This document shows, one piece after another, positions 33,183-48,274 of a stretch of DNA of 64,000 nt. Source of the DNA: Hyphomicrobiales bacterium. GTDB taxonomy: Bacteria; Pseudomonadota; Alphaproteobacteria; Rhizobiales; Rhizobiaceae. The notes under the pieces are model-generated. The model was not told where the DNA came from, ran no database searches, and saw only the letters and a program-made list of their open reading frames with translations. The position numbers and the translations under genes are program-made. Position 1 is the stretch's first letter, and the number at the start of each line of letters is the position of its first letter. The stretch is from assembly GCA_900470285.1 (NCBI GenBank), contig UCAG01000002.1:138146-202145 (forward strand). Reading direction: 5' to 3'.

Positions 33183-33206
33183 GTCTTTTCCTGTGCGTTG
33201 CTGTCT

Positions 33207-33254
33207 GACGCGGCCAGTCTGGCCCCATGATTATCAGACGCGGCCAGTCTGGCC
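33207..33254. repeat. Tandem duplication of the aroC 3' end
   Basis: GACGCGGCCAGTCTGGCC occurs at 33207-33224 and again, identically, at 33237-33254, 30 bp apart. The right copy encodes the last residues of AroC (GQTGRV) plus its stop TGA; in the left copy the stop has become AGA. Each copy contains the palindrome GGCCAG-T-CTGGCC. Confidence 0.85.
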
Positions 33255-34325
33255 GCGGTGACGCAAATAATGATCCGCAATCGCGCAAGCGAGCATTGCT
33301 TCACCAATCGGCACAGCACGGATGCCAACGCACGGGTCATGACGGCCTTTGGTCATGACATCCACTTCCTTCTTATCCACATCAATAGAACGACGTGTCG
33401 TGAGAATGGATGAGGTCGGCTTCACGGCAAAGCGGGCAATAATCGGTGCACCGGTTGCAATACCGCCAAGAATACCACCGGCATTATTCGACAGGAAGAC
33501 CGGATTGCCATCGGCATCAATGCGCATTTCATCGGCATTTTCTTCACCGGTCAGCGTTGCAGCCTCAAAGCCATTACCGATTTCAACACCTTTTACTGCA
33601 GGGATCGACATCAGATTGGACGCAATATCCTGATCCAGTTTGGCATAAAGCGGCGCGCCGATACCGGCTGGAACACCTTCAGCCACAACCTCAATCACTG
33701 CACCAATGGAGGAACCATTTTTACGGATACCATCGAGATAACTGGCGAACAGTTCTACTGAGCCTGCATCCGGTGTAAAAAACGGATTATTGTCGACTTC
33801 AGCCCAATCCCAGCGGGAGCGGTCAATCTTGTGAATGCCCATGCCTACCAATGCTGCACGGATTTTCAAACCCGGCACAACCTTGCGGGCAATCGCACCG
33901 GCAGCAACACGCGCTGCGGTTTCACGCGCAGAAGAACGTCCGCCGCCACGATAATCGCGCAGGCCATATTTTACATCATAAGCATAATCCGCATGACCCG
34001 GACGGTATTGACGGGCAATCTCGCCATAATCTTTTGAACGCTGATCCACGTTCTCAATCATCATGGAAATCGGCGTACCGGTGGTAGTCATCACCCCGTC
34101 TTCACTGGTGAGAACACCGGACAATACCCGCACCTGATCCGGCTCGCGGCGCTGTGTGGTATATTTTGACTGACCCGGCTTGCGCTTATCAAGATAGGTC
34201 TGAATTTCAGCTTCGGTAAATTGAATACCCGGAGGGCAGCCATCAATAATACAACCCAGCGCCGGACCATGGCTTTCGCCCCAGGTCGTCACGCGGAAAA
34301 GATGGCCAAAGCTGTTATGCGACAT
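33234..34325 (-). CDS. aroC: Chorismate synthase
   Basis: Converts EPSP to chorismate with reduced FMN, the last common step of aromatic amino acid synthesis. 363 residues with the three family signatures: [23 protein letters not shown] at the start, [18 protein letters not shown], and [19 protein letters not shown] near the end. The ATG is preceded by TTGGGGTTTTCT; an in-frame TTG four codons upstream is less likely. The C-terminus GQTGRV is encoded in a palindrome that is duplicated just downstream. Confidence 0.96.
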
Positions 34326-34618
34326 AGAAAACCCCAAGATTGAACCGGTTCTTTGCGGTTCATTTTAATTTCAGTTTGGTAATCTGTTTCTATTCGCCTT
34401 TTAAGCGGTGGTCAAACAAGAGAAAGACGGGCGCACAAAAAAGCAGCGCCAATCGATACTGTTTGCGGTATCGGCACCATATGACCGGAAAATGTTGCGA
34501 AATTCTGCGGATATAGTCTAGTCTGAGCAACAGAGCATTTCAGAGAAGCAAGTCGTTCAAATGCCATAATTGGCTTGCAATTTTGCGTTCACGATTTCAT
34601 CAGGCACAAGGATATCTC

Positions 34619-44426: not shown

Positions 44427-44470
44427 AAGCAAAACACCACATGCCCCTTCAAGCATGTGGTGTTTTGCTT
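44427..44470 (+). terminator. Very stable hairpin after the acyl-CoA operon
   Basis: An 18-bp perfect stem (44427-44444 with 44453-44470; core ACACCACATGC and GCATGTGGTGT) around an 8-base loop, with A-rich and T-rich flanks. It is longer than the other terminators here. Confidence 0.85.
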
Positions 44471-44495
44471 GTTCTGTGACTGGAGATCACATATT

Positions 44496-44607
44496 TAATT
44501 CTTTAAACGCGCGAGATAATCTCAGTTTTTTTAAACTCGCGAAATAATTTCCTGTCTTTTAAACTCGCGAAATAATTTCAGCTTTTTTACACTCGCGAGA
44601 TGATCTC
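44496..44607. repeat. Four tandem 28-bp repeats spanning the end of the DUF6101 gene
   Basis: Exactly four units of 28 bp. Read on the minus strand each has the form GARATYATYTCGCGAGTKTAA plus a 7-base A-rich spacer. The first unit (44580-44607) is the coding end of the gene (EIISRV and stop), and each later unit again encodes EIISRV-stop in its own frame, apart from one silent change. Units include the palindromes CGCGAGAT-G-ATCTCGCG or GAAAT-A-ATTTC. There are no spacers of differing sequence, so this is not a CRISPR array. Confidence 0.92.
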
Positions 44608-45162
44608 GCGGCCAGAAATCTTCAAACTTACGCCCAGCGAACCGGTTTTGCGGCGTGCCAGAAAACGCGGGCGACGACGGCGCGGTTCCTGCCCCTGACG
44701 ACGCTCTGTGCTGGCTGAAGCTGTAACACCGCCAATGCTGTCATAAAGCGGACGGGCAACACCATCGGCCTCAACCAAAAGCATCGGCAGCTTGTAAGCA
44801 TTTGCCCATGCATGCCAGTCGGCGGCAACATCATCCAGATCATGCGCCACCAGCAACGGCACAGACATTTGCGGATCTTCGTGCATCAGTTCCAGTGTCA
44901 CGGTAATCAGACCCTGTTCATCTTCAACCGCACGGGCAGTCACACCGAGAAACACATGGGCAGGTAATGCCACAGACATTGGCAAACCGCTGGAAGGCAA
45001 TACGCGTCGCAGCACTGCGCCACGCTCATTAATCGTAAAAGTCACATCTTCCTGCTCCCCCGTGGAAGCGTAAGATACGCTCTGAGGGAACTGGAAAGGA
45101 TCGAGACGGATCTCCCTGCTCGCCCAAACTGGTTTGTCCTGTTTTTCCAGCATCTGGTTCAT
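44587..45162 (-). CDS. DUF6101 family protein
   Basis: 191 residues without a signal peptide or membrane segment. N-terminal part WASREIRLDPFQFPQSV and a conserved basic C-terminal tract EPRRRRPRFLARRKTG resemble a family of unknown function (DUF6101) that I know from Hyphomicrobiales. Possibly PilZ- or nucleic-acid-binding from its basic tail, but that is a guess. Start uncertain: ATG at 45160-45162 or GTG at 45250-45252, which would add 30 residues. Its 3' end is the first of four tandem 28-bp repeats. Confidence 0.72.
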   Translation of the reverse strand: MNQMLEKQDKPVWASREIRLDPFQFPQSVSYASTGEQEDVTFTINERGAVLRRVLPSSGLPMSVALPAHVFLGVTARAVEDEQGLITVTLELMHEDPQMSVPLLVAHDLDDVAADWHAWANAYKLPMLLVEADGVARPLYDSIGGVTASASTERRQGQEPRRRRPRFLARRKTGSLGVSLKISGREIISRV

Positions 45163-45741
45163 TGTTTTCGCGCCCTGTACCTTCTGAGAACCGCTGTTAT
45201 TTTTATTTTCGGTCCTGTTATATTTGCGAGCCTTTTTGGCTTCGTTAGACACAAGAATAGCGCGGCAAAGTCACCAATCTGCTTAAATGACACGGTTAAT
45301 GCTTCTGTCTTTGCGGGAATGGTTTACAGATTCCAACTATCGGCCAAGCAGAAGTAAGATTTCGGAAAGGCCGGTAAACAGCATTTAAACCATGAAAATC
45401 AGCGAATATTTATGATTTTTAACAAGAGTTAAACAATAGGCGCCTGTTCTGCTTCGCCAACAGCATTTTACCGCTTCCGGAGCTTCCAAATCTGAAGATT
45501 GTCTGAAAACCACCATCCGTCAGCAACCAGTTATTAAGGCTGAGGCTGTGGACATTAAATCCGCGTTAAACACGCCGGACAGCACATCAATCTTTTGCTA
45601 ACCGCGTTTTTGCTGCTCAGAATGTGGATATTTACCGCTCGTTTATGATGAGCGGTGGGCAAAGCGTCCTGTTTTTAATAATTGAGCCGCCGCTTCTTAA
45701 CGAAACGGCGGCTCAATGTTTAAATTTTAACAAGGCTCAAT
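45163..45741. other. Non-coding region between the DUF6101 and oxidase genes
   Basis: About 490-580 bases, depending on the DUF6101 start. It is AT-rich in its left half (45300-45440) and holds two hairpins on the right: ACCGCTC/GAGCGGT at 45634-45656 and the stable one at 45681-45718. No gene is recognisable. Confidence 0.5.
45681..45718. terminator. Stable hairpin after the GlcD-like gene
   Basis: ATTGAGCCGCCG and CGGCGGCTCAAT form a 12-bp perfect stem with a 14-base loop, 23 bases past the oxidase stop. Its outer arms TTGAGCCGC and GCGGCTCAA are shared with the hairpin at 60384-60421. Confidence 0.65.
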
Positions 45742-47160: not shown

Positions 47161-47184
47161 CTGTTTCCGCCCAAATTCAACTAA

Positions 47185-47232
47185 TCGCGCGGCGCAGCCG
47201 CCCAGTTCCAGTTATTCGCGCGGCGCAGCCGC
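47185..47232. repeat. Tandem duplication of the Sua5 gene 3' end
   Basis: TCGCGCGGCGCAGCCGC occurs at 47185-47201 and at 47216-47232, 31 bp apart. The right copy is the coding end of the Sua5 gene (AAAPRE and stop TAA). Each copy carries the palindrome GCGGC-GCA-GCCGC; on the minus strand the second copy also ends in an in-register stop-like TTAG. Confidence 0.85.
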
Positions 47233-48174
47233 GCGCGATAAGCGATCATTAATTGCTTCGCCCAGACCATGATGCGGCACCGGCTCAACGGCAATCGTCT
47301 TCGCCCCTGCTGCATCCAGTTTTTTCATATAATCAAACAAATGCACGGCAGCTTCATGCAAGTCACCGGAAGGGCTTAGATTCAGCACCGCAGCCGCATT
47401 TTCTGCCCCCGCTGCACGTTGCGCTCCAAAACCCAGCAGCGCCTCGCCTTCACGCACTTCAGAGATATTCAACCGCATCGCTGCATCCGGCGCATAGTGA
47501 GACGCCATCATGCCCGGCGCCTGAATGGCCGCACGCTGATCCAGACGATGCAAAGGCTGACCGAGAAAGGCTTCGATCTCTTCTGCTGCCAAACCACCCG
47601 GCCGCAGCAAAAATGCCTGACCATTTTCAATTTTAACAATGGTGGATTCCAGCCCCACGACACAGGCACCACCATCAACGATCAGATCGAGTTTGGCACC
47701 CAGATCATCCTGCACAGCCTGTGCCGAGGTGGCGCTGATACGACCAGAACTATTGGCGCTCGGTGCAGCTAACGGGCGGTCAAGCATGGCAATAATCTCA
47801 CGCACCGGCCCGCGCGGCATACGAATGGCCAGCGTTGTGAGACCGGCGGTCACCAGCGGATGAATCTCTGCACCGTCACGCACCGGCAGCACCAGTGTCA
47901 GCGGCCCCGGCCAGAATTTTGTCGCAAGTTTACGAGACAGATCATCAAACACCACATAGCGCTCGGCCATTGCAAGCGTCGCCATATGCGCAATCAGCGG
48001 ATTGAAATGCGGACGGCCTTTGGCAGAGAAAATACCCGCAACCGCATTGCCATTGGTAGCATCGGCGGCCAGTCCGTAAACAGTCTCGGTTGGCAGAGCC
48101 ACAAGTTTGCCTATGCCCAGCGCATTTGCAGCCAGTTCAAGAGATGAAATGTCAGTAGAAATAATTTGTGCCAT
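47212..48174 (-). CDS. L-threonylcarbamoyladenylate synthase (Sua5 type)
   Basis: Makes threonylcarbamoyl-AMP from threonine, bicarbonate and ATP for the t6A37 modification of tRNA. 320 residues: a YrdC domain (about 1-190; LPTETVYGLAADATNG, SAKGRPHFNPLI, AAPSANSSGRIS) and a C-terminal Sua5 domain (about 215-320; SPGMxxxHYAP-like PGMMASHYAPDA). ATG follows GCAGGAGCGCGGC; in-frame starts up to 48225 are less likely. The last codons lie in a duplicated palindrome. It is 51 bases upstream of the GlcD-like gene on the same strand. Confidence 0.94.
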   Translation of the reverse strand: MAQIISTDISSLELAANALGIGKLVALPTETVYGLAADATNGNAVAGIFSAKGRPHFNPLIAHMATLAMAERYVVFDDLSRKLATKFWPGPLTLVLPVRDGAEIHPLVTAGLTTLAIRMPRGPVREIIAMLDRPLAAPSANSSGRISATSAQAVQDDLGAKLDLIVDGGACVVGLESTIVKIENGQAFLLRPGGLAAEEIEAFLGQPLHRLDQRAAIQAPGMMASHYAPDAAMRLNISEVREGEALLGFGAQRAAGAENAAAVLNLSPSGDLHEAAVHLFDYMKKLDAAGAKTIAVEPVPHHGLGEAINDRLSRAAAPRE

Positions 48175-48274
48175 GCCGCGCTCCTGCAATTTTTTGCAAG
48201 CTGGCAGCACTGTCAGGACCTGCATGTTCTCTGACTACAGAACCATGAAACGCGATGCAAGACTGTAATCCCTG

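What the first reader, a model, noticed from the sequence alone, without database searches (positions are those of the whole stretch)
44496..44607. Gene end with four tandem copies of its own last codons and stop
The last 28 bp of the DUF6101 gene, which encode EIISRV and the stop, are repeated three more times immediately downstream. The period is exactly 28, not a multiple of three, yet every unit has an in-unit EIISRV-TAA. The units differ by a few bases that conserve the residues and stop. A simple slippage repeat would be expected to decay freely in non-coding DNA; here each copy retains coding-like meaning and a palindromic core. It may serve as a stepwise backup of the stop or as repeated RNA signals at the mRNA 3' end.
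Basis: partly seen in the sequence, partly recalled or inferred. Interest (0 to 1): 0.8.

Follow-up and report, generated by a model that had tools for sequence, protein, structure and literature searches.

The report
Hairpin tandem repeats at gene ends
The repeated gene end is real, and it is one of a group of private, often hairpin-bearing tandem repeats that span the stop codons of many genes in the bacterial genus Pseudochrobactrum but were not seen in the relatives checked; they look like spare, interchangeable gene ends made by local DNA duplication, with an RNA role still possible.

Summary
In detail: four units (44497-44607, spacing 28 bp) each read EIISRV-stop at the end of a DUF6101 gene in a Pseudochrobactrum genome. 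All six Pseudochrobactrum species examined carry the array, with 2 to 5 units spaced 27-31 bp; 21 outgroup loci have a single end. Of 15 downstream units, 10 keep EIIxRV-stop and 5 are broken. In two species the gene's own end matches downstream units of other species, so units seem able to become the gene end. This explains the kept coding sense better than a backup stop.

The larger result: this is not a single oddity. In 2.02 Mb of three Pseudochrobactrum genomes, 20 of 29 short tandem duplications (shift 16-60) outside gene interiors span a stop codon (22% expected), none a start. In 0.8 Mb of two outgroups 0 of 3 do. Sixteen of 20 periods are 27-33 bp, sequences are private to each gene, and array gene ends carry longer stems than other gene ends. 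aroC, chvI-like, lspA and Sua5-like ends show arrays in five or six of six species.

Best reading: hairpin-prone duplication plus unit exchange; a selected RNA element is the main rival. Ten full-text searches listed no description.

The parts
44587..45252 (-). DUF6101 gene (221 aa); family C-terminus EIIAR, here EIISRV
   Evidence: ORF; PF19596 E 9.7e-86; orthologous ends
44580..44607 (-). unit 1, the true gene end: GAG ATC ATC TCG CGA GTG TAA; with the preceding CGC forms a 17-nt perfect palindrome (8-bp stem)
44552..44579 (-). unit 2, EIISRV-TAA; its 4 differences from unit 1 in these codons are synonymous
44524..44551 (-). unit 3, EIISRV-TAA, identical to unit 2 over the first 21 nt
44497..44523 (-). 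unit 4, EIISRV-TAA, last unit; its first 21 nt equal the last unit of L041
   Evidence: read
44475..44491 (-). TGTGATCTCCAGTCACA, identical inverted-repeat block after the array in all six species; one exact copy in the genome (one more with 2 mismatches)
44427..44470 (.). 18-bp terminator-like hairpin between DUF6101 and the convergent enoyl-CoA hydratase gene
   Evidence: read; no Rfam family at its gathering score; no terminator scan was run
33198..33256 (-). second array of the class: end of aroC (33234-34337), period 30, GCGGCCAGACTGGCCGC in the last codons
   Evidence: gene name recalled from the protein sequence
47167..47234 (-). third array of the class: end of a Sua5-like gene (47212-48225), period 31, second copy reads AAAPRD-TAG against AAAPRE-TAA
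   Evidence: gene name recalled from the protein sequence

Best explanation
The array is one of a class of gene-end tandem repeats in Pseudochrobactrum. A short stretch, mostly 27-33 bp, that covers the last codons, often able to fold as a hairpin, and the stop codon is duplicated head to tail by a local replication error (slippage or template switching at the hairpin; inferred). Copies that span a stop are harmless because the gene still ends in the first copy (inferred). The array then gains and loses units (shown by unit counts across species). A deletion that joins the gene body to a later unit gives back the same codons and stop, so any unit can become the gene end (supported by unit matches in two species, by the tree in one of them). 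Because living gene ends and downstream copies are repeatedly exchanged, copies lean to synonymous differences and keep their stops, while distal units that escape exchange decay. No job in the cell needs to be assumed.
For: Unit number varies over six species and outgroup loci have one end. P. saccharolyticum u1 is identical over 21 nt to units 2 and 3 of the window and 4 differences from its u1; P. asaccharolyticum u1 is 1 and 2 differences from unit 2 of L040 and L038 but 4 from their u1, which are identical to each other, and the flank tree joins L038 with L039 at 100, L040 outside at 100. The five broken units are the final units of four species and the last but one of L040. Class: 20 of 29 duplications outside gene interiors span a stop in 2.02 Mb, expected share 0.224, P 1e-7; 0 span a start; G000 alone 14 of 17, P 3e-7. 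0 of 3 in two outgroups; no stop-spanning one in 21 named outgroup loci or 23 same-family loci. First downstream copies of 19 arrays: differences at codon positions 15/7/27, stops kept in 15 of 19; third-position excess P 0.0014. 13 array gene ends carry longer stems than 932 other gene ends of G000 (mean 5.6 v 4.1 bp, P 1e-4).
Against: Stop-spanning arrays outnumber wholly intergenic ones although both should be harmless; preservation by exchange may explain it but was not shown. chvI-like hairpin arms, one of them non-coding, pair better with their own partner than with swapped ones (P 0.001), which selection on RNA would also give. 3 of 13 array gene ends have stems of only 3-4 bp, so a hairpin is not required. 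Neither the duplication mechanism nor why this genus has it was found: SbcD and Y1 transposase families do not track it. The 20 arrays are 16 distinct genes, so the tests count aroC and DUF6101 three times each. TRF also shows a 112-bp array in G005 (L199) that the first gene caller put over a start; it is outside the 16-60 range of the count. In Falsochrobactrum ovis (L055) a short tandem repeat, shift 24, begins just after the stop of the Sua5-like gene.
Confidence: 0.55

Rival explanations
1. Selected RNA element: the units are tandem 3'-end hairpins that slow exonucleases, or act on the terminating ribosome, as REP elements near stop codons are reported to do. Local duplication is the raw material and selection keeps the arrays.
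For: Longer stems at array gene ends; covariation of chvI-like arms GAGGC/GCCTC with GAAGC/GCTTC, P 0.001, and of DUF6101 units of three species, P 0.016 (few and related units, one broken DUF6101 unit left out); arrays at aroC, Sua5-like, chvI-like and DUF6101 ends in six, five, six and six of six species (by eye).
Against: lspA and aroC arms show no covariation (P 0.85 and 1.0). Nine DUF6101 downstream units of three species have stems of at most 3 bp. Template switching can also make and repair perfect stems (PMC8794818, abstract). Hairpins at stops rise only slightly genome-wide, and in two of three genomes.
Confidence: 0.3
2. Ordinary neutral minisatellite by slippage, of no special kind, with coding sense kept only because the duplications are young.
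For: Variable unit number and broken units.
Against: Excess at stops, none at starts in the counted range; the same gene-end arrays in species whose DUF6101 genes differ by up to about 15%; third-position bias.
Confidence: 0.1
3. First reader's stepwise backup of the stop codon.
For: Stops kept in 15 of 19 first downstream copies.
Against: Periods range from 22 to 56 with no common frame; the window gene has a second in-frame stop after 3 codons, two others only after 32 and 72.
Confidence: 0.03

Closest known systems
REP/BIME elements (repetitive extragenic palindromes)
   Same: Short palindromes close to stop codons, sometimes in tandem (the latter recalled); in E. coli 446 of 4,072 predicted REPs lie within 15 nt of a stop and such REPs are reported to stall ribosomes (PMC12306157, passages seen).
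   Different: REPs share sequence across the genome (recalled); here each gene has a private unit that includes its own last codons, and the window genome has no Y1 transposase match.
Mycobacterial interspersed repetitive units (MIRU; recalled, not searched)
   Same: Tandem units at gene ends that carry the stop codon, number varying among strains.
   Different: MIRUs are longer and homologous between loci; these are mostly 27-33 bp and private.
Template-switch (quasipalindrome) mutation
   Same: Makes perfect inverted repeats and compensatory changes in one step (PMC8794818, abstract; PMC7202029, search listing only).
   Different: What I saw describes hairpins, not tandem arrays of gene ends.
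Bacterial VNTR/minisatellites
   Same: Head-to-tail units, number varies between genomes.
   Different: Placement over stop codons, coding-like differences between units, narrow period.

Membership tests
REP/BIME | sequence family dispersed over the genome | tested here: not met
   unit core matches 6 times in the 3.8 Mb genome, 5 of them in this array; units of the other arrays look unrelated by eye
REP/BIME | lies outside genes | tested here: not met
   first unit contains the last codons and the stop
REP/BIME | palindrome able to form a hairpin | tested here: met
   8-bp stem in the coding unit of the window; array gene ends v 932 others P 1e-4, though 3 of 13 have stems of 3-4 bp
REP/BIME | REP-associated Y1 transposase in the genome | tested here: not met
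   PF01797: 0 in G000; 3 of 10 genomes match, two of them Pseudochrobactrum
VNTR/minisatellite | tandem units, copy number differs between genomes | tested here: met
   2 to 5 units in six species; strains within a species not tested
Intrinsic terminator array | stem followed by a run of U in the gene's sense | tested here: inconclusive
   read by eye, stems of the DUF6101 and LivF-like arrays are followed by A-rich sequence in sense; no terminator scan and no RNA data
MIRU | homologous units at many loci | tested here: not met
   unit core private to this array but for one other match; MIRU features recalled

The most novel reading that the evidence does not exclude
Pseudochrobactrum has a genus-specific process that builds hairpin-bearing tandem arrays of gene ends (by extrapolation from 14 in 1.22 Mb some 40 per genome), giving genes interchangeable spare C-termini with stops, and some arrays have been taken up as selected mRNA 3'-end elements.
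Probability: 0.3. Interest if true: 0.75.

Novelty: new variant of a known kind. Interest (0 to 1): 0.58.

Why it matters
If right, it shows how non-coding DNA can keep coding meaning without being translated: copies and the living gene end trade places. It gives a natural, countable record of tandem duplication and hairpin-linked mutation at one kind of site, so far seen in one genus only, so the responsible replication or repair trait could be sought. If the RNA reading is right, it is an independent origin of REP-like 3' elements from each gene's own sequence.

Tried and rejected
Chance: excluded (shuffled controls 0 hits). Backup stop by readthrough: frames do not fit. Known RNA family: two matches below their gathering scores, mir-4703 and EF0408_EF0409. 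Mobile repeat: unit core is private but for one other site. Y1 transposase: no match in the window genome. Loss of SbcD as cause: 0 of 10 genomes pass the curated cut-off and 8 of 10 have a weaker match, all six Pseudochrobactrum among them, neither Falsochrobactrum, so it does not separate array genomes from others. A stop hairpin on every gene: the -20..0 bin is 3.7%, 4.3% and 1.8% in the three Pseudochrobactrum genomes against roughly 2-3% upstream. Palindrome before duplication: suggested by single-copy palindromes in G005 (Sua5-like, zwf-like and L073 gene), but contraction fits as well, so not claimed. Strand bias: 11 of 14 arrays of G000 are on minus genes, but minus genes are commoner on contigs C10, C12 and C13, where 13 of the 14 lie; no claim. 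First gene caller (longest ORF) misfiled two aroC arrays as inside an antisense ORF; a codon-usage caller replaced it; both results are given. A hairpin test on the array's first bases gave P<=0.05 for 4 of 17 stop-spanning arrays (combined P 3e-4) and for 5 of 26 other duplications (combined P 0.02): weaker than the gene-end test.

Literature: ten searches were answered, two of them with no paper; the listings held no description of such arrays, but each list shows only the best-ranked papers, and most subscription papers are not in that library.

Full report
What is there. The window lies in contig C12 of a 3.8-Mb genome that belongs to Pseudochrobactrum, judged by the named neighbours. The DUF6101 gene (minus strand, 44587-45252; PF19596) ends in EIISRV-TAA, and the 28 bp that hold these codons recur three more times toward the convergent enoyl-CoA hydratase gene. 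Tandem Repeats Finder scores the array 128, the highest of 12 rows in the window; four matches to the unit against 0.01 expected.

The same locus in relatives. One scan of genome contigs gave 26 loci: five Pseudochrobactrum (one of them titled Bacillus subtilis SK6B4) and 21 others (Brucella, Ochrobactrum, Falsochrobactrum, Phyllobacterium, Mesorhizobium, Paramesorhizobium and two titled Rhizobiales bacterium). The C-terminus EIIAR is kept in 21 of 21 outgroup loci, read, each with one end; a self-match scan finds no stop-spanning duplication in those 21 loci, 138,610 bases. All six Pseudochrobactrum species have an array: 4 units in the window, 3 in P. saccharolyticum, 2 in sp. sp1633, 4 in SK6B4, 3 in P. 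asaccharolyticum, 5 in P. kiredjianiae, with 15 spacings of 27 to 31 bp. A seventh genome of the genus, 61% complete, gave no DUF6101 match. Of the 15 downstream units 10 read EIIxRV-stop and 5 are broken. The broken ones are the final units of four species and the last but one of P. kiredjianiae.

Units become gene ends. In P. saccharolyticum the gene's own last 21 nt are identical to units 2 and 3 of the window and differ at 4 sites from its unit 1. In P. asaccharolyticum the gene's end differs at 1 and 2 sites from the second units of P. kiredjianiae and SK6B4 but at 4 from their first units, which are identical to each other. A tree of gene and downstream flank puts SK6B4 with P. asaccharolyticum at support 100 and P. 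kiredjianiae outside at 100, so the odd end of P. asaccharolyticum is most simply a replacement. The placement of sp1633 and the root in that tree does not sit well with the pairwise identities, so the P. saccharolyticum case rests on unit matches alone. A deletion by one unit would do this and keep frame and stop. It is an inference from short units.

The class. A scan of window plus sampled stretches of G000 (1,224,637 bases, about 2 kb of them counted twice), G005 = P. saccharolyticum (400,000) and G006 = P. asaccharolyticum (400,000) for ungapped duplications (26 nt, at least 21 matches, shift 16-60) found 43: 20 span a stop codon, 14 lie inside genes, 9 are intergenic and none spans a start (composition-shuffled controls gave 0 hits). 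Random placement of arrays of these lengths predicts a stop share of 0.224 among those outside gene interiors; 20 of 29 observed, P 1e-7; G000 alone 14 of 17, P 3e-7. By genome the stop-spanning counts are 14, 2 and 4. The 20 are 16 distinct genes, since aroC and DUF6101 were each met in three species. The longest-ORF gene caller gave 17 of 27, P 8e-5. In the outgroups Falsochrobactrum tianjinense G061 and an unnamed same-family genome G021, 400,000 bases each, 0 of 3 non-internal duplications span a stop; zero against the Pseudochrobactrum rate has P 0.001-0.003 by the first gene calls. No stop-spanning one was found in 23 further same-family loci, 82,761 bases. Stop-spanning periods were 22, 27, 27, 27, 28 (four times), 29, 30, 30, 31, 33, 33, 53, 54 and 56 for the 17; the three added have 27, 30 and 30, so 16 of 20 lie in 27-33. 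The other 26 duplications range from 21 to 57. Beyond the scanned range, TRF shows an 82-bp array over a stop in G006 and a 112-bp array that the first gene caller put over a start in G005.

Other members. Gene-end comparisons, units counted by eye, show arrays at aroC in six of six Pseudochrobactrum species (about five units in G004), at a chvI-like regulator in six of six with the stop codon in the hairpin loop, at lspA in five of six (none in G004), and at a Sua5-like gene in five of six (one unit in P. saccharolyticum). The outgroup genomes read for aroC, lspA and chvI-like (four each) have no such array, though the aroC end of G064 is followed by a different, shorter repeat; for the Sua5-like gene eight of nine outgroup loci are plain, and F. 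ovis (L055) has a short tandem repeat that begins just after the stop. Gene names other than DUF6101 and enoyl-CoA hydratase are recalled from the protein sequences, not searched. The aroC end in G061 has only the core CCAGACTGG, whereas Pseudochrobactrum has the full GCGGCCAGACTGGCCGC, as a template switch would leave; but G063 has CGGCCAGACGGGCCG without an array, so the case is only suggestive.

Hairpins. In G000 the longest perfect stem from -30 to +15 of the stop averages 5.6 bp for 13 array genes and 4.1 bp for 932 others, P 1e-4; 3 of the 13 have stems of only 3-4 bp, so a hairpin is usual, not universal. Swapping 3' arms among units lowers pairing for the chvI-like family (18 units, P 0.001) and for DUF6101 of the window, P. 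saccharolyticum and sp1633 (8 of 9 units, P 0.016), but not for lspA (13 of 15 units, P 0.85) or aroC (13 of 16 units, P 1.0). The units left out were degenerate: the broken third unit of P. saccharolyticum, two lspA units whose right arm is gone, and three distal aroC units, so these tests lean toward paired units; DUF6101 units of the other three species were not put to this test. At DUF6101 the coding unit folds with a 6-8 bp stem in six of six species, while downstream units have 5 or fewer. REIISR is itself nearly palindromic in DNA. Selection on RNA is therefore possible for some arrays and poorly supported at this one.

Coding footprint. In the first downstream copy of 19 of 20 arrays given (one had no comparable codons), 118 codons show 49 differences, 15/7/27 by codon position; third-position excess P 0.0014; 22 codons differ synonymously and 21 not; the stop is kept in 15 of 19. 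Orthologous arrays are counted separately there.

Mechanism and limits. Best supported is local duplication, usually where the gene end can fold, followed by gain, loss and exchange of units. Duplication by slippage or template switching is inferred; the abstract of PMC8794818 states that template switching can create perfect stems and help maintain them. REP elements within 15 nt of a stop are reported to affect translation (passages of PMC12306157), which keeps the RNA reading open. SbcD and Y1 transposase families do not separate genomes with arrays from those without. No RNA data were available, species and not strains were compared, about a third of G000 and a tenth of G005 and G006 were sampled, and gene calls are my own.

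Literature. Searches for DUF6101, Pseudochrobactrum with tandem repeats or palindromes, and for tandem or palindromic repeats with stop codons or template switching listed no paper on such arrays; only listings were seen, except passages of PMC12306157 and the outline and abstract of PMC8794818.

Noticed in passing
window 44475-44491: TGTGATCTCCAGTCACA, an inverted repeat identical in all six Pseudochrobactrum species although the array beside it varies; one exact copy in the genome. Function not known.
   Followed up: partly
L099 13443-13962: A Fur-like regulator gene (name recalled) ends in VDVIVRLRRKD-TGA, and 54 bp on the same eleven residues and stop recur with all five differing codons synonymous. 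May be the old end left after replacement by a divergent allele.
   Followed up: partly
L103 6357-6423 and L223-L227: chvI-like regulator: tandem hairpins with the stop codon in the loop and paired changes in the arms, in six of six Pseudochrobactrum species.
   Followed up: partly
L206 (aroC end, G004): About five tandem 30-bp copies of the aroC end, the largest aroC array seen (by eye).
   Followed up: no
L055 1300-1349: Falsochrobactrum ovis: a short tandem repeat (shift 24) starts right after the stop of the Sua5-like gene; possibly a related event in an outgroup.
   Followed up: no
L038: The contig is titled Bacillus subtilis SK6B4 but its sequence groups with Pseudochrobactrum: a mislabelled public record.
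   Followed up: no
L164 12775-13219; L191 7089-7263: 57-bp tandem repeats (7.8 and 2.8 copies). The core of the L164 unit (GAGCATTTCCAGCAAAAGTGCG) also stands after DUF6101 in L048, L058 and L060, so it is a dispersed repeat, a different kind from the gene-end arrays.
   Followed up: no
L096 8103-8183: Three 28-bp units after the gene end, each ending in TAA, in which two kinds of palindrome occur (by eye).
   Followed up: no
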